6,838 nucleotides of DNA, from positions 1-6,838 of the forward strand of contig JBFLYE010000029.1 of assembly GCA_040756715.1 (NCBI GenBank), given 5' to 3'. Origin of the DNA: JBFLYE01 sp040756715 [NCBI: bacterium]. GTDB taxonomy: Bacteria; UBA9089; UBA9088. This document shows positions 1,877 to 6,720 of this stretch, in pieces. Both the position numbers and the translations under genes were made by a program. Each line of letters opens with the position of its first letter. Position 1 is the first letter of the stretch. The notes below the pieces were generated by a model, which worked only from the letters and a program-made list of their open reading frames with translations, did not search any database and was not told where the DNA came from.

Positions 1877-1972
1877 TTATTTTTTCATAAGCATCACCCC
1901 CTCTCTTGATTTTGAAATCTTTTTCTCTCTTGGGTTATTCATAAAGCTCTTTTCAAAATTATGAAGCTTCAT
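1877..1972 (-). pseudogene. Methyltransferase gene remnant (N-terminal fragment)
   Basis: The 31-codon frame starts MKLHNFEKSFMNNP, matching 11 of the first 14 residues of the methyltransferase at 429-1067 (MKLHKIEKIFMNNP). Over those 42 bases I count 33 identities, with several differences at third codon positions. After residue 14 the similarity ends; the frame continues with REKKISKSREG and stops at TAA. The matching upstream element (copy B) lies before it as copy A lies before the intact gene. It therefore looks like a paralogous methyltransferase copy that lost its body. A short functional peptide cannot be excluded. The rest of 1828-2098 holds no gene I can support. Confidence 0.55.
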
Positions 1973-1997
1973 TGCTGAATCCCTAGAAGCCACACTA

Positions 1998-2015
1998 CTA
2001 AAACTCTATGGCTAA
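1998..2015 (-). repeat. Junction element copy B
   Basis: The minus strand reads TTAGCCATAGAGTTTTAG and differs from copy A (1083-1100) at one base in 18. It lies between the open extension of the coiled-coil gene and the start of the methyltransferase remnant, 25 bases before that ATG. Confidence 0.55.
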
Positions 2016-2098: not shown

Positions 2099-2305
2099 CT
2101 ACCCTTCATGTTCGCTCTCAATATGGCCCACATGTGCCAAGAGATCATCCACATGGCCAGTAAGATCCCTTACATGGCCGACCATATCCTGATAGGCCTT
2201 GCAATCCTTATGTTCACCCAAGTCCCTTTCCATATGCTCTAAATCATCGTGGATATGATCCAAGTCCTTCTTCACATGCAGGACATCCTCTTTTAATAAC
2301 CCCAT
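2099..2305 (-). CDS. Free-standing His-rich coiled-coil hairpin protein, homologue of the FeoA insertion
   Basis: The protein has 68 aa and no recognised family name that I know. Residues 4-67 align without gaps to residues 29-92 of the FeoA-domain protein at 5652-6149; I count 30 identities in 64 positions. Two helices are predicted from strict 3-4 hydrophobic spacing: V8, V11, L15, I18, L22, M25, L29, and M41, V45, L48, V52, L55, V59, I62, joined by GEHKDCKAYQ. Ten histidines are present. H10, H17 and H24, and H44, H51 and H58, recur every seven residues, so each set lines one helix face. Such a layout could bind metal or form a pH-sensitive contact; this is inference. AGGAGG six bases before the ATG gives strong translation. 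No signal peptide or membrane helix is seen, so it is cytosolic. It may pair with the FeoA insertion. Confidence 0.8.
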   Translation of the reverse strand: MGLLKEDVLHVKKDLDHIHDDLEHMERDLGEHKDCKAYQDMVGHVRDLTGHVDDLLAHVGHIESEHEG

Positions 2306-2319
2306 TGTTTGCCTCCTTT

Positions 2320-2337
2320 TTAGAATTCTATGGCCAA
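2320..2337 (-). repeat. Junction element copy C
   Basis: The minus strand reads TTGGCCATAGAATTCTAA, 15 of 18 bases identical to copy A at 1083-1100. It contains two adjacent palindromes, TGGCCA and TAGAATTCTA. It closes the signal-peptide frame with its TAG and ends 14 bases before the ATG of the coiled-coil gene, just ahead of that gene's AGGAGG. Confidence 0.55.
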
Positions 2338-2408
2338 TTATTGACCTCTGCCCATAAGGGAGCAGCAGTCAACCAGGTTATTATGCTCAATGTAATCAAT
2401 CTCTTCAT
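2328..2408 (-). pseudogene. 26-codon signal-peptide frame, probably a truncated secreted protein gene
   Basis: After a strong ribosome binding site (AAGGAGG, 7 bases before the ATG) this frame encodes MKRLITLS, a hydrophobic core IITWLTAAP, and LWA/EV, a good signal peptidase I site after residue 20. It then ends at NNWP and a TAG stop. A start signal and export signal this good with only six residues left to export suggest the front of a secreted-protein gene whose body was lost. A tiny exported peptide or a leader peptide is the alternative. It begins 29 bases after the DUF4198 fragment and stops 22 bases before the 68-aa coiled-coil gene. Its last codons, TGGCCATAG, are the start of a repeat found at two other junctions. 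Confidence 0.4.
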
Positions 2409-2437: not shown

Positions 2438-2746
2438 CTATTCTATCTCAATAGCCTCAATCCAGAGGACGGCGTCCTCTGAGAGCTCTTTGCCTTTGTA
2501 GGTCTTTTCTCCACCAGCACCTAAGGCGGCAAAACCCCAGTATCCTGCCTTTGGTGGGACAAAGGAGAATTCACCATCCTTGTTGGCCAGTATCACCGCA
2601 GCACCATGGCCTTCTTTGGCTATCTTGGGTTTCCCGGTGAACTTGTTGCCTTTCATATCAACCTCATAGTTGATATACTCAACCTCTATTTCTACATTGG
2701 GCACAGGGTTTCCTTTACCCTCACTGCAATCAAGATTCATTCGCAA
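2438..2746 (-). CDS. DUF4198 (NikM-like) protein, C-terminal part only
   Basis: The 102-aa frame resembles the C-terminal beta-sandwich of DUF4198/NikM-like periplasmic proteins, often found beside Ni, Co or Fe transport genes. Family-like segments are VPNVEIEVEYINYE (15-28), NKDGEFSFVPPKAGYWGFAA (55-74) and the closing DAVLWIEAIEIE (91-102). What should precede them, a signal peptide and roughly 100 or more residues, is absent: the frame opens only 21 bases after the feoB stop. The longest start is TTG at 2746, with ATG at 2740 as alternative; neither has a visible ribosome binding site, the upstream bases being T-rich. As it stands the product could not be exported. I read it as a 5'-truncated remnant joined to feoB by deletion, though low-level translation after feoB is possible. 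The family call rests on memory of the motif pattern. Confidence 0.6.
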   Translation of the reverse strand: MRMNLDCSEGKGNPVPNVEIEVEYINYEVDMKGNKFTGKPKIAKEGHGAAVILANKDGEFSFVPPKAGYWGFAALGAGGEKTYKGKELSEDAVLWIEAIEIE

Positions 2747-2767: not shown

Positions 2768-5434
2768 TTAACCCATCGGTTTTCTTTTAATAAAACCCAT
2801 CACTACCATAACCGCTATGGCCAAGATATAAAAGTAAATTGAAGCCTGAAGGCCTGAAAGGCCCAGGAGAGTGCCTCCGGAGAATAGAATGACTGCTATT
2901 ATAAACCCTAAGATAACAGGGTAGATGGCTGCAAAGAGCATCCAGCTCATCCCAGCCTCTAACTTGATCATAATCAGTGTGGGGATGCAGGGAGGATACA
3001 TCGCCATAAAGAACATCAGAGAGGCGGCATGAAGTGGTGTCCAGCCCTTCTCTTTTTCTTTTATCCTCTCCTCAAGCCTTTCCCTCCTTGCCTCTGGTGC
3101 GGGCTCATAGATACTTCCCAGGGTTGCTACGCTACTCTCCTTGGCGGCAAAGGAGCTTAATAAAGCAATATTTACCCTCCAGTTGAACCCTGCAAACTTG
3201 GTGACTGGCTCTATAAACTTACCTGCTCTTCCCAGATAGCTTGAGGCGATTACCTCCTCCTTTCTCTCTCCTCTTAAGGCCTTCCTCTCTTTTTCCAGCT
3301 TCCCGTATGCCTTATAAACCATTTTTGCCTCAGAATCTATAAGCTCATCCTTCTCAAGGATAACATCTCCTGTCCTTACCAGAGAAAAGTATTTATGGTT
3401 TATCCGATCCCATTTTTGATAAAATGCCACCTTAAGCCTCTTTCTATTTTCTTTGCTCAATCGGGCATAGGTAGCCAAAAACCTTTCCTTATCCTTTTTA
3501 TAGGCAAAAAACCATGCCTTGAACCTCTCTGGGTTGGTTATCTTTATCTTTCCCTTATTGACTATCTTTGCAAATTCGGGATTTTTCTCCAAAAAGCTTT
3601 GGTTTACCTTCTCCATCTTTCCTTTGGCTGCTATCTTTGCCTTCTTATAATCCCCAAGATACCTGACAAACTCCATCAATCCATGGCCGGCCAAAACCCT
3701 GGCATATGGATTATCCCTCCCAATCTCATCAAAGAAGGAAGCAATTAGTTGATTGGCCTGGTTGGTGTAATCTGCCTTCCTTTCTGGATTCAATGAAGGA
3801 AAGGAGACAAGCAGATAGACAAGAACCATCACTGCAATGACAATGGTCATAACCTTCCTCACAAAGAGCCAGGTTCGCTCTACAGAACGGCGCAAGACAT
3901 TGCCAATCGTAGGCAGATGATAGGTGGGCATCTCTAAGACAAAGGGTGCAGTCTCTTTTTTTCTAAGTATGGTAAGGGATAGGAGCTTAGCCACAGATAG
4001 GGCTATGATGATGGTGATCGTAGCAATAAGGAACATATAAAGACCCTTTTGGCCAGCAAAGAATATTCCTATAAGGAGGACATATAGAGGAATCTTGGCC
4101 AGGCAGTTCATAAGAGGGACAACTAATATGGTTGCCAGTCGGGCCCTTTCATCCTTTATACCGCGGCAGGCCATACATCCGGGTATAGCACATCCACCTA
4201 CATATAGCCCACCTAAGACCAAAGGGAGGATAGACTGTCCGTGCAGGCCAAAATTCCTAAAGATTCTATCTAAGATAAATGCCATCCGGGCTATATAGCC
4301 TGTATCCTCCAAGATGGCTATAAGGGCAAAGAGGATCAGGAAGATGGGTATGTAGTTCAGGACTGCTATGATCCCATCGAACACCCCCAATGGCATTGAC
4401 CTAAGAAAGGGGTCAAAGACAAATCCCTCATAGGGGAGGGCTGAGGCTATAAGGTCTCTAAAATATGCCAATAGAGGCCAGGTATAGTTGGTCAGTTCAT
4501 ATCCCTTAACTATGGCCAGTTCATACAATAGATAGATGGTTGCAGCCAGAATGATTGGGCCAAGGAATCTATTGCAGACAATCTGGTCAATCCTATCTGT
4601 CAGTCTCCTTTCAGATACCCCTTCATAGGTAATACAATCTGCTACAATCTCTTCTGCCTTCTGATAGCGTATCTGGGCAATAGCCTTCTCTGGCTCTTTT
4701 TTGTGGTACGATACAAACTGCTTTCTCTCATCTTCAATCCTCATCAAGATAGTATCTGCATGCTTGGCATGTTCGGAAACTACCTTCTTTGCCTCTGAAT
4801 CACCCTCCACAAGCTTTACTGCCAGCCATCTTGTAGGATACCGGCTTTCTTTAATCCCTGAGTCTTTTTGCAACTGGCTTTCTATCTGGGCAATCCCTGG
4901 TTCTAACTCTCCATAGTTTAACAAGATGGAAGATTTCTTCTCTTTGGCAGAGGTATATATAGCCTCTTTAAGAGGCTTCTTTCCCTTTCCTCTATTTCCA
5001 ACTGTAGAGACGACAGTCGCTCCTATCCTCTCAGAAAGCCTTCTTACATTGATCTTAAAACCCCTTCTCTCTACCACATCCATCATATTCAAATCAATAA
5101 CTAAGGGTATACCCATCTCGGCCAACTGGAAGACCAGATAGAGGCTGCGCTCTAAGTTGGAGGCGTCTACTACATCAACTATAAGATCAGGGGCTTCATG
5201 GAGAAGAAAATCCCTTGCCACCCTCTCCTCTAAGCTGTAAGATGTGAGGCTATAGGTGCCTGGAAGGTCAACTATCTCTATTCTGTCTTGCCCAAATCTA
5301 TATTCGCCTGTCTTCTTCTCTATGGTTACCCCTGGATAGTTGGCCACATGCTGCCTTGCTCCAGTAAGCAGATTGAAGATGGTAGATTTGCCTGAATTGG
5401 GCTGGCCGGCACAGGCTACTAATATCTTTTTCAT
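2768..5434 (-). CDS. feoB: Ferrous iron transporter FeoB
   Basis: This 888-aa inner-membrane protein imports Fe(II). The cytosolic G domain shows G1 GQPNSGKS (10-17), switch I YPGVT (33-37), G3 DLPG (56-59), G4 NMMD (116-119) and a G5-like VSTVG (142-146). A helical spacer domain runs to about 285. The membrane part has two gate-like halves: ILEDTGYIARMAF (374-386) with GGCAIPGCMACR (413-424) and PLMNCLAKIPLY (440-451), then SYLGRAGKFIEPV (732-744) with FAAKES (762-767). Helices at about 802-822, 826-853 and 862-882 end the protein. Compared with FeoB of about 670-770 aa, the extra length is a hydrophilic, lysine-rich insertion at about 550-730 between the halves. The pore region has more cysteines (C415, C420, C423, C444) than usual. 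The start is fixed by the ATGA overlap with feoA and by GGAGGT nine bases upstream. Confidence 0.98.
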   Translation of the reverse strand: MKKILVACAGQPNSGKSTIFNLLTGARQHVANYPGVTIEKKTGEYRFGQDRIEIVDLPGTYSLTSYSLEERVARDFLLHEAPDLIVDVVDASNLERSLYLVFQLAEMGIPLVIDLNMMDVVERRGFKINVRRLSERIGATVVSTVGNRGKGKKPLKEAIYTSAKEKKSSILLNYGELEPGIAQIESQLQKDSGIKESRYPTRWLAVKLVEGDSEAKKVVSEHAKHADTILMRIEDERKQFVSYHKKEPEKAIAQIRYQKAEEIVADCITYEGVSERRLTDRIDQIVCNRFLGPIILAATIYLLYELAIVKGYELTNYTWPLLAYFRDLIASALPYEGFVFDPFLRSMPLGVFDGIIAVLNYIPIFLILFALIAILEDTGYIARMAFILDRIFRNFGLHGQSILPLVLGGLYVGGCAIPGCMACRGIKDERARLATILVVPLMNCLAKIPLYVLLIGIFFAGQKGLYMFLIATITIIIALSVAKLLSLTILRKKETAPFVLEMPTYHLPTIGNVLRRSVERTWLFVRKVMTIVIAVMVLVYLLVSFPSLNPERKADYTNQANQLIASFFDEIGRDNPYARVLAGHGLMEFVRYLGDYKKAKIAAKGKMEKVNQSFLEKNPEFAKIVNKGKIKITNPERFKAWFFAYKKDKERFLATYARLSKENRKRLKVAFYQKWDRINHKYFSLVRTGDVILEKDELIDSEAKMVYKAYGKLEKERKALRGERKEEVIASSYLGRAGKFIEPVTKFAGFNWRVNIALLSSFAAKESSVATLGSIYEPAPEARRERLEERIKEKEKGWTPLHAASLMFFMAMYPPCIPTLIMIKLEAGMSWMLFAAIYPVILGFIIAVILFSGGTLLGLSGLQASIYFYILAIAVMVVMGFIKRKPMG

Positions 5435-5655
5435 AACAGAGTTACCTCCACACCACTTGCCTCAGAATGGCGTATACTTACATGATTCCCTCTTATCAAA
5501 AGGTCGACTGGGTCCACTAAAGGTGCATTGCGGATAACCTTCACCTTTGTTCCAGGAATAAACCCCATATCGGAAAATCGCTGTCCTGTGGCGCCTTCTA
5601 AATGCACTTCTATAATTCTGCATTCCTGACCAGGTCTTAGCTCATTTAACCTCAT
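5431..5655 (-). CDS. feoA: Ferrous iron transport protein A
   Basis: This is a 74-aa protein of typical FeoA length. It shows the family pattern throughout: MRLNELRPGQECRIIEV, then RFSDMGFIPGTKVKVI (26-41), then strands around APLVDPVDLLIRGNHVSIR, forming a small SH3-like barrel. FeoA is a cytosolic accessory of FeoB; its exact action is debated, but it is needed for Fe(II) uptake in several bacteria. The start is supported by GGGAGG five bases before the ATG, inside the end of the preceding FeoA-domain gene, and by an ATGA overlap with that gene. Its own stop overlaps the feoB ATG in the same way, so all three should be made in a fixed ratio. Having a plain FeoA next to an elongated one suggests divided roles. 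Confidence 0.95.
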   Translation of the reverse strand: MRLNELRPGQECRIIEVHLEGATGQRFSDMGFIPGTKVKVIRNAPLVDPVDLLIRGNHVSIRHSEASGVEVTLL

Positions 5656-6149
5656 CTTTTCCTCCCATTAAAAAGAGAGCCAATTGACCACCCCCTTCTG
5701 TATCTGTGTGGACCTCGTCTGGCAAATAATGGGATAACCATAATCTTCCTGGCCATGTTAAAACCGACCATCAAACGGGTCTCCTTGATAGCCAACAATA
5801 GAGGTCCACCCCTACTCACATTAAGCACCTCCACAATTGAGCCTATCCCAAGACCCATATTGATCAGGCGATCTCCATGCTCTCTCTCAATATGGGCTAC
5901 ATGTCGCAGAAGATCATGGATCTGGCTGTGTAGACCCTCTATATGGGTGATCATCTCCTGATGGATTGAACGATCTATCTGCTCGCCTATCTCTTCTCTC
6001 ATATTCTGCAAATCATTATGTATATGCTCTAAGTCCTTCTTTATATACAAAAGATCTTCCCTGATATCCCTGTCGATATCTAAGGATACAATTTTGGCCT
6101 TTGTATATGGTGCAATCATGGTCAACGGTACAGGTCTTAACTCATCCAT
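5652..6149 (-). CDS. FeoA-domain protein with an internal coiled-coil hairpin insertion
   Basis: The 165-aa product looks like an FeoA SH3-type domain cut in two. Residues 1-24 (MDELRPVPLTMIAPYTKAKI and on) match the first FeoA strands. Residues about 92-138 (DRLINMGLGIGSIVEVLNVS, then the GGPLLLAIKETRLMVGF strand pair) match the rest. Between them, about 25-91 form two amphipathic helices with 3-4 hydrophobic spacing, joined by a turn near GEQID, rich in His (H42, H44, H63, H69, H74, H78, H83, H86, H91). A basic tail (139-165) follows. Ordinary FeoA proteins are about 75-85 aa and lack this insertion. The insertion is clearly homologous to the 68-aa protein at 2099-2305. The stop overlaps the feoA start (ATGA), so the two are probably co-translated. 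FeoA proteins are cytosolic partners of FeoB; a metal-sensing or scaffolding role for the hairpin is my inference. Confidence 0.9.
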   Translation of the reverse strand: MDELRPVPLTMIAPYTKAKIVSLDIDRDIREDLLYIKKDLEHIHNDLQNMREEIGEQIDRSIHQEMITHIEGLHSQIHDLLRHVAHIEREHGDRLINMGLGIGSIVEVLNVSRGGPLLLAIKETRLMVGFNMARKIMVIPLFARRGPHRYRRGWSIGSLFNGRKR

Positions 6150-6205: not shown

Positions 6206-6652
6206 TCACCTCCTCTCTTTAGAACTCCCAGAGCACGCCTTACAATACCCTCTAATGCCTAACCTATGTTCTACAGGGTTAAATCCATATCTTTTGCAAA
6301 TTTCATCTTGCAATCTTTCAATCTGCTCATCTTTAAATTCAATGATCTTACCACATCCTATACAGAGCAGGTGGTCATGATGGTCATGTCCAAAGGTATG
6401 TTCATAACTCGCCCTACCCTGGCAACGAAATGCCTCTTTAACCAGATTACTTTCAACTAATAAAGGAAGGGTTCTATAGATAGTAGCCCTTGAGATACGT
6501 TCGTCTCGCTTACGCAAACGATCATAAAGCTCGTCTACATCAAAATGTTTATGGGTAGAGAACACCTCCTCCAAAACAACCTCTCTTTCAGGGGTAAACT
6601 TCAACCCCTTTTGTCTCAAATAGTCTTTAAATATCTTTTCTTTGGTCATCAT
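6206..6652 (-). CDS. fur: Fur family ferric uptake regulator
   Basis: This is a 148-aa metal-sensing repressor of normal Fur length. The N-terminal winged-helix DNA-binding domain covers about residues 1-85, with the recognition helix in SRATIYRTLPLLVE (54-67). The C-terminal dimerisation domain carries the metal-binding run H89-D-H-H-D-H94 and two CxxC pairs, C97/C100 and C137/C140, which form the usual structural zinc site. E105 (in GKIIEF) sits where Fur proteins have glutamate and the peroxide sensor PerR has aspartate, so iron-sensing Fur is favoured over PerR. Two tandem ATG codons start the gene; the first is chosen because GGTG lies 5 bases before it. It is first in the feo operon, behind a consensus promoter and a Fur-box-like site. 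Regulation of the feo genes is inferred from this position. Confidence 0.95.
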   Translation of the reverse strand: MMTKEKIFKDYLRQKGLKFTPEREVVLEEVFSTHKHFDVDELYDRLRKRDERISRATIYRTLPLLVESNLVKEAFRCQGRASYEHTFGHDHHDHLLCIGCGKIIEFKDEQIERLQDEICKRYGFNPVEHRLGIRGYCKACSGSSKERR

Positions 6653-6660
6653 TTTATCAC

Positions 6661-6694
6661 CAATTGCAATTAAAAATCAATTTCAATTATCATT
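6661..6694. promoter_or_regulatory. Candidate Fur operator over the fur transcription start
   Basis: On the minus strand this stretch reads as hexamer-like AT-rich steps: ATGATAATTGAAATTGAT, then TTTTTAATTGCAATTG. TGATAAT matches a half of the Fur consensus (TGATAATnATTATCA), and the repeated AATTGA/AATTG steps resemble extended Fur boxes. It begins inside the -10 box and runs to the ribosome binding site, an ideal place to block RNA polymerase. A regulator of the Fur family is encoded directly downstream, so autoregulation is the simplest reading. The match is partial and I did not score it with a matrix. Confidence 0.6.
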
Positions 6695-6720
6695 ATAACC
6701 ACAATTTATCTTTTTGTCAA
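6692..6720 (-). promoter_or_regulatory. Consensus sigma-70 promoter of the fur-feo operon
   Basis: Read on the minus strand, TTGACA (6715-6720) is followed after exactly 17 bases by TATAAT (6692-6697). Both hexamers and the spacer match the sigma-70 consensus perfectly. The -10 box lies 39 bases before the first fur ATG, so a transcript would start near 6685. A promoter this strong would normally need tight repression, which agrees with the candidate Fur operator overlapping and following its -10 box. It is the only well-formed promoter I see in the window. Confidence 0.85.

What the first reader, a model, noticed from the sequence alone, without database searches (positions are those of the whole stretch)
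2099..2305. Free-standing homologue of exactly the FeoA insertion in the same cluster
The 68-aa protein matches residues 29-92 of the FeoA-domain protein from end to end, with no gaps, 30 of 64 positions identical, and six shared histidines (H17/42, H19/44, H44/69, H58/83, H61/86, H66/91). The hairpin thus exists both as an insertion and as an independent gene with a strong ribosome binding site. This suggests a mobile module that pairs with its partner, for example as a soluble subunit or antagonist of the FeoA insertion. The similarity is also visible in the DNA (2105-2296 against 5874-6065).
Basis: seen in the sequence. Interest (0 to 1): 0.8.

Follow-up and report, generated by a model that had tools for sequence, protein, structure and literature searches.

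The report
Feo-cluster hairpin gene copied into FeoA
A tiny histidine-rich helical protein encoded in a bacterial iron-uptake gene cluster also sits, almost whole, inside a neighbouring iron-uptake protein, so one cluster holds the module both as a free gene and as a built-in part; its job is untested, but a metal-handling helper is the best guess.

Summary
The 68-aa protein matches residues 29-92 of the FeoA-domain protein without gaps (30 of 64 identical, six shared histidines). It is not generic coiled coil: the true register scores 183, the best other diagonal 50. Relatives show a likely history. A feo cluster in G213 (same phylum as Omnitrophota contig L059; FeoB 66% identical) has the corresponding first FeoA without the insertion, and what looks like a 17-codon remnant of the hairpin gene in the same place after DUF4198. 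L059 has the hairpin as a pseudogene in that place. So the free gene is probably the older form and a copy was later inserted into FeoA. The same-genus genome G001 has no detected FeoA, FeoB-level match or Fur, yet keeps an intact hairpin (44 of 66 identical) behind DNA matching the fur promoter and first fur codons: apparently a deletion scar. The free protein is therefore not an obligate partner of the insertion. Best guess: a cytosolic two-helix metal-handling accessory of this Feo system, brought to FeoB in its FeoA-borne copy. Metal binding and partners are inferred. Intact copies: 2 of 386 genomes.

The parts
2099..2305 (-). free-standing hairpin gene, 68 aa, 10 His, 18 Asp+Glu
   Evidence: modelled as helices 2-29 and 36-66, mean pLDDT 85; intact relative in G001, remnants in G061 and G213
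2312..2317 (-). ribosome binding site AGGAGG, 6 nt before the ATG
   Evidence: read
5652..6149 (-). first feoA gene of the cluster (FeoA1), 165 aa, FeoA domain interrupted by the hairpin
   Evidence: PF04023 E 2.9e-10, residues 89-139 match profile 22-73
5874..6065 (-). hairpin insertion inside FeoA1 (residues 29-92)
   Evidence: 30/64 identical to the free protein; absent from the corresponding FeoA1 of G213
5431..5655 (-). second feoA, ordinary 74-aa FeoA
   Evidence: PF04023 E 1.4e-19; 42/74 identical to G213 FeoA2
2768..5434 (-). feoB, 888 aa
   Evidence: PF02421 E 3.4e-62; 543/822 identical to G213 FeoB
2438..2746 (-). DUF4198 gene, cut down to its C-terminal third
   Evidence: PF10670 positions 156-207 of 209; aligns to residues 190-280 of the 280-aa G213 protein
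6206..6652 (-). fur
   Evidence: PF01475 E 3.9e-34
6660..6720 (-). fur promoter (TTGACA-17-TATAAT) and A+T-rich operator-like stretch; the same stretch lies upstream of the hairpin gene in G001
   Evidence: 83 of 102 aligned bases identical over window 6728-6626, score 85 against at most 45 in 300 shuffles; promoter boxes read by eye; a Fur site is inference

Best explanation
The 68-aa protein is a small cytosolic histidine- and acid-rich two-helix hairpin that belongs to a particular FeoA-FeoA-FeoB-DUF4198 iron-uptake cluster. Shown by comparison: it is truly homologous to the FeoA insertion; the insertion is absent from the corresponding FeoA of a related cluster; the free gene (or its remnant) follows DUF4198 in that cluster type in genomes of two phyla. 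Inferred: the free gene is the older form, and a nearly complete copy was inserted in frame into the loop before the clamp helix of FeoA1. Inferred function: a metal-handling accessory that accepts, buffers or passes on Fe2+ (or another divalent metal) on the cytosolic side of FeoB, perhaps as a homodimeric four-helix bundle; the inserted copy puts the same module on FeoB through FeoA, while the free copy works on its own and can outlive the transporter, as in G001. FeoC-like in genomic position, not a FeoC.
For: Homology beyond composition. Corresponding FeoA1 without insertion in G213: the flanks joined align 32/67 to it, against 12/43 to the own FeoA2. Same gene place after feoB-DUF4198 in L059 (pseudogene) and G213 (17-codon remnant). 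G001: intact hairpin (44/66 identical) behind fur-promoter-like DNA and the first fur codons, with no FeoA, no Fur and no FeoB-level match found. Constraint: dN 0.27 with pS 0.66 between the free copies (dS near saturation, so the ratio is rough). 10-11 His in 68 residues; His 10, 17, 24 and 44, 51, 58 lie 7 apart, mirrored about the turn, in both free copies. Helical hairpin modelled, pLDDT 85.
Against: Metal binding is not tested. In the insertion one His of each mirrored pair is replaced (Tyr35, Asn49, Gln76), so the ladder is not conserved there. The His spacing is only mildly unusual (p 0.015) and its mirror symmetry was noticed after the fact. Only three intact sequences exist, so conservation says little. 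The G213 remnant is short: E 6e-4 per genome in a 384-genome search, carried by its place. The gene decays in both Omnitrophota, so it is dispensable beside FeoB. Synonymous divergence of the hairpin between G000 and G001 exceeds that of the neighbouring methyltransferase (4-fold sites 5/8 versus 7/50, p 0.007), so simple joint inheritance of the locus is doubtful.
Confidence: 0.5

Rival explanations
1. Pairing module: the free hairpin and the FeoA insertion form a heteromeric four-helix bundle, so the free protein is a removable subunit or antagonist of FeoA1 that tunes FeoB.
For: Paralogous hairpins in one cluster often keep the ability to pair (general knowledge); ungapped alignment with conserved core positions; FeoA binds FeoB's G-domain side in a fused system (PMC8980893, passages).
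Against: G001 keeps the free gene with no detected FeoA or FeoB-level match; FeoA1 of G213 has no insertion although that cluster once had the free gene. No complex was modelled.
Confidence: 0.2
2. Reverse direction: the free gene was born by excision or duplication of the FeoA insertion.
For: Both forms exist in this genome; the inserted copy is about as diverged from each free copy (dN 0.36 and 0.39) as expected for an old split.
Against: FeoA1 of G213 lacks the insertion while the free-gene remnant sits in the same place as here; L059 has the free gene as pseudogene. The FeoA1 of the L059 cluster is not assembled, so it is silent.
Confidence: 0.08
3. Structural spacer: the hairpin is a dimerisation or spacing coiled coil with no metal role; the histidines are incidental.
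For: Sequence and fold matches are all generic coiled coils or helical hairpins; the insertion has lost half of the His ladder.
Against: 10-11 His plus 17-18 acidic residues in 68, with H17, H19, H44, H58, H61, H66 kept in all three copies, in a metal-uptake cluster.
Confidence: 0.2

Closest known systems
FeoC (PF09012), small accessory protein of gammaproteobacterial Feo systems
   Different: no PF09012 match, one Cys instead of the C-terminal CX2-7C motif, helical hairpin in the model and not a winged helix (winged helix of FeoC is recalled)
FeoA (PF04023), including FeoA with additional domains
   Same: the host of the insertion is a genuine FeoA-domain protein; [quoted passage not shown]
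   Different: here the extra piece interrupts the FeoA domain and is a copy of a separate gene of the same cluster
Encapsulated ferritin EncFtn and other two-helix metal proteins
   Same: two-helix subunit; an ExxH motif in helix 2 (E63-x-x-H66, invariant in the three copies; EncFtn uses Glu62 and His65, passages)
   Different: no sequence match to any solved chain except generic coiled coils; no equivalent of Glu32 within helix 1 (Glu31 lies beyond the modelled helix end at 29)
Rop-type helical hairpins that dimerise to four-helix bundles
   Same: same simple fold (1rpo Z 6.4)
   Different: a common arrangement; no evidence of kinship

Membership tests
FeoA (host protein 5652-6149) | match to PF04023 over its cut-off | tested here: met
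   40.5 bits against cut-off 23
FeoA (host protein 5652-6149) | next to feoB | tested here: met
   feoA1-feoA2-feoB with overlapping ends
FeoC | match to the FeoC profile | tested here: not met
   PF09012 not among the 9 Pfam families up to E 1 for the 68-aa protein
FeoC | C-terminal CX2-7C motif | tested here: not met
   a single Cys, at residue 35
FeoC | gene downstream of feoAB, same direction | tested here: met
   with DUF4198 between
EncFtn-like ferritin | ExxH in helix 2 | tested here: met
   E63 and H66 invariant in three sequences; helix 36-66
EncFtn-like ferritin | metal-ligand Glu in helix 1 (Glu32 of EncFtn) | tested here: inconclusive
   E31 invariant but outside the modelled helix
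EncFtn-like ferritin | sequence relationship to solved EncFtn chains | tested here: not met
   not among the 27 sequences up to E 1 nor the 6
EncFtn-like ferritin | encapsulin partner and targeting peptide | not tested
   not searched
Feo accessory protein (functional sense) | binds FeoA or FeoB, or affects Fe2+ uptake | not testable with these tools
   needs bench work

The most novel reading that the evidence does not exclude
A previously undescribed Feo accessory protein, a histidine-ladder helical hairpin that handles Fe2+ on the cytosolic side of FeoB, whose gene was copied almost whole and in frame into a neighbouring gene of the same cluster, giving a tethered and a free version that can form mixed four-helix bundles; and the free version can be kept under the old fur promoter after the rest of the transporter is lost.
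Probability: 0.2. Interest if true: 0.7.

Novelty: new variant of a known kind. Interest (0 to 1): 0.5.

Why it matters
How FeoA acts on FeoB, and what the small extra proteins of Feo clusters do, is still open (PMC8749426 abstract and passages). Here one helper is found free, built into FeoA, decaying, and kept alone, in comparable clusters. That is a natural series for asking what the module gives to FeoA, and a compact example of how a domain insertion can arise from a neighbouring gene, with what looks like the uninserted state still preserved in a relative.

Tried and rejected
Generic coiled-coil match: rejected by the register test and the class-preserving shuffles. Known families: Pfam gave nothing over a cut-off for the 68-aa protein (9 families up to E 1, best E 0.015), nor for the G001 protein (7 up to E 0.1, best 0.009) or the insertion (8, best 0.033); NCBIfam one at E 0.046; PHROGs one unknown family at E 0.0043 for the window protein and six up to E 0.07 for the G001 protein; PADLOC none for the window protein and one at E 0.013 for the G001 protein. 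Solved structures: the profile's low whole-sequence E-values (best 8e-9) come from repeats; no single stretch is better than E 0.17 among the alignments printed, and the matches are a lectin neck, a designed protein and GCN4 fusions (with the single sequence: 6, best E 0.0034). Foldseek: no match at E <= 0.001 among 50; VIA-align: 80 of 80 chains at Z >= 5, best 10.1, a common arrangement; EncFtn is not listed, which proves nothing. FeoA1 with insertion: the model is poor (mean pLDDT 54).

Searches for relatives: genome contigs with the 165-aa protein gave 46 stretches and no relative; with the hairpin alignment 99 stretches, 1 relative, L059. These are pattern-limited scans and miss diverged copies. 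Viral contigs: 123 stretches, none. Plasmids: none at E <= 0.1. Phage and E. coli collections were not searched. Whole genomes: 14 of 61 at E <= 1 with the single protein, of which 2 (G000, G001) are clear; the other 12 (E 0.0058 to 0.75, open frames 100 to 1219 aa) were not examined. 2 of 19 in the phylum; 6 of 384 in the phylum of L059, of which 2 (G061, G213) are accepted by place; L063, L064 and L065 lie in frames across or within unrelated genes by ORF listing, L066 was not examined; 1 of 12 in the order of G213; 2 of 386 diverse genomes; 4 of 384 in the class of G061, the same four as. With the 165-aa protein 32 of 61 genomes matched at E <= 1; outside G000 and G001 the best was E 2.7e-4, over the FeoA part, and the weaker rows were not examined one by one.

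Novelty in print: seven searches of the held library. None of the rows listed describes this hairpin or an insertion of this kind in FeoA by title or abstract; one search listed 20 of 80 and one search listed 10 of 17 papers. Papers seen: PMC8749426 (passages and section 5), PMC8980893, PMC5012862 and PMC11870441 (passages only). Others: listing only.

Full report
What is there. All main genes are on the minus strand: fur (6652-6206), FeoA1 with the insertion (6149-5652), FeoA2 (5655-5431), feoB (5434-2768), a shortened DUF4198 gene (2746-2438), the 68-aa hairpin gene (2305-2099), then a membrane protein (1827-1192), a methyltransferase (1067-429) and a small membrane protein (424-122). The window is contig C29 (6838 bases) of a draft genome of 1.55 Mb in 218 contigs.

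The similarity. Residues 4-67 of the free protein align without gap to residues 29-92 of FeoA1: 30 of 64 identical, six shared histidines, 126 of 192 DNA bases. It exceeds residue shuffles (z 22), heptad-register shuffles (z 17) and class-preserving shuffles (z 5.1; best of 2000 shuffles 163, observed 183). Because the protein has 7-residue internal repeats (self score 72 at offset 7), the fair test is register: the best other diagonal scores 50. This is homology.

The insertion and its empty state. In FeoA1 the FeoA profile resumes at position 22 after the hairpin. G213, a genome of the same phylum as the Omnitrophota contig L059, has the run DtxR-type repressor, FeoA1 (78 aa), FeoA2, FeoB, a small secreted-looking protein, DUF4198, porin. 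Its FeoB is 66% identical to the window's (543/822), FeoA2 57% (42/74). Its FeoA1 has no insertion and aligns 32/67 with the window's FeoA1 once the two flanks are joined, against 12/43 for the window's own FeoA2. The insertion therefore lies in the loop before the helix 'DRLINMGL'. In the Bacteroides fragilis FeoA structure a loop at residues 18-23 is one of two that vary most, and Phe23 is part of the clamp (PMC8980893, passages); that this is the equivalent loop is my inference.

The free gene in the same place elsewhere. In L059 (record title: Candidatus Omnitrophota bacterium) feoB, a small secreted-looking protein and DUF4198 are followed 6 nt later by a hairpin pseudogene: stop at codon 6 and the middle missing, ends recognisable (E 2.0e-8). 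In G213 the gene after DUF4198 starts with 17 hairpin-like codons, behind its own ribosome binding site, and runs on into a porin. Its E-value is 6e-4 for one genome among 384 searched, so it is the place, not the score, that makes it convincing. The contig of L059 begins inside feoB; its FeoA1 is unknown, and the one FeoA found in that genome belongs to a second cluster.

The same-genus genome. G001 (2.6 Mb, 97% complete, 2% contamination) has an intact hairpin gene with 44 of 66 identical residues. The 107 bases upstream match the window's fur promoter, the following A+T-rich stretch and the first codons of fur (83 of 102 aligned bases, score 85 against at most 45 in 300 shuffles), and then pass straight into the hairpin's ribosome binding site. 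No FeoA and no Fur was found in G001; its best FeoB_N match has 54 bits in a 450-aa frame with two such domains, against 163-214 bits for feoB in G000 and G002-G004, which fits other GTPases. I read this as a deletion of fur to DUF4198. A missing contig or misassembly is possible: the contig starts 124 bases before the match.

A result that does not fit neatly. The methyltransferase beside the hairpin in both genomes is 185/212 identical in protein, and 4-fold sites differ at 7 of 50; in the hairpin they differ at 5 of 8 (p 0.007). The hairpin unit or the methyltransferase has thus had a separate history, or the small sample misleads. A duplicated methyltransferase start in the window (2015-1932 and 1100-1027) shows that this flank has been rearranged.

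Direction. Free gene or its remains: window, G001, L059, G213. Insertion: window only, among the genomes searched. With G213's uninserted FeoA1, the free gene as the older form is the simpler reading. Divergence (dN free-free 0.27, free-insertion 0.36 and 0.39) suggests that the copying is older than the split of the two free copies, so the ancestor of G001 may have had the insertion too and lost it with the deletion. Three sequences do not settle this.

Anatomy. The free protein is modelled as helices 2-29 and 36-66 (pLDDT 85, two-sequence alignment). It has 10 His and 18 Asp/Glu in 68 residues. His 10, 17, 24 in helix 1 and 44, 51, 58 in helix 2 lie 7 apart and mirror each other about the turn, in both free copies; in the insertion one member of each pair is lost. 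Four His pairs at spacing 7 against 1.2 expected, p 0.015. Invariant in the three copies: E6, D7, D14, H17, H19, D21, E31, H44, D54, H58, H61, E63, E65, H66 among others. No signal peptide is apparent by eye, so I place it in the cytosol.

How it may work. Shown: homology, cluster membership, and one FeoA1 with and one without the insertion. Inferred: a metal-handling accessory on the cytosolic side of FeoB, free or tethered through FeoA. [quoted passage not shown] G213's stretch also holds a NikR gene, so nickel is not excluded. The persistence in G001 argues that the free protein has a use apart from FeoA and FeoB.

Rarity. Clear intact copies were found in 2 of 386 diverse genomes and 2 of 19 of the phylum, the same two; in the L059 phylum 2 of 384 with remnants only. 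No named family covers it.

Verdict. A real and unusual gene-to-domain copying within a Feo cluster; the pairing idea is open and not obligate. New variant of a known kind.

Noticed in passing
window 2438-2746 (-): The DUF4198 gene keeps only the C-terminal third of its 277-280 aa relatives in L059 and G213 and has lost its signal-peptide end.
   Followed up: partly
window 2328-2408 (-): A 26-aa signal-peptide-like ORF with its own ribosome binding site lies between DUF4198 and the hairpin gene, perhaps the remnant of a secreted protein.
   Followed up: no
window 1932-2015 and 1027-1100: The start of the methyltransferase gene and its upstream DNA is duplicated, on either side of a membrane-protein gene (1192-1827).
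   Followed up: partly
window 5652-5724: FeoA1 ends in a basic tail (about residues 142-165) beyond the FeoA domain; G213's FeoA1 stops without it.
   Followed up: no
L068 864-1064 and L059 5274-5507: A 66-77 aa protein without a Pfam family, alike by eye in both, lies downstream of the hairpin in G001 and in L059.
   Followed up: no
L068 1076-1444: HPr-family protein with a cysteine-rich tail between the hairpin and the methyltransferase in G001.
   Followed up: no
L067 203-610: A NikR-type nickel regulator opens the stretch that holds the G213 feo cluster.
   Followed up: no
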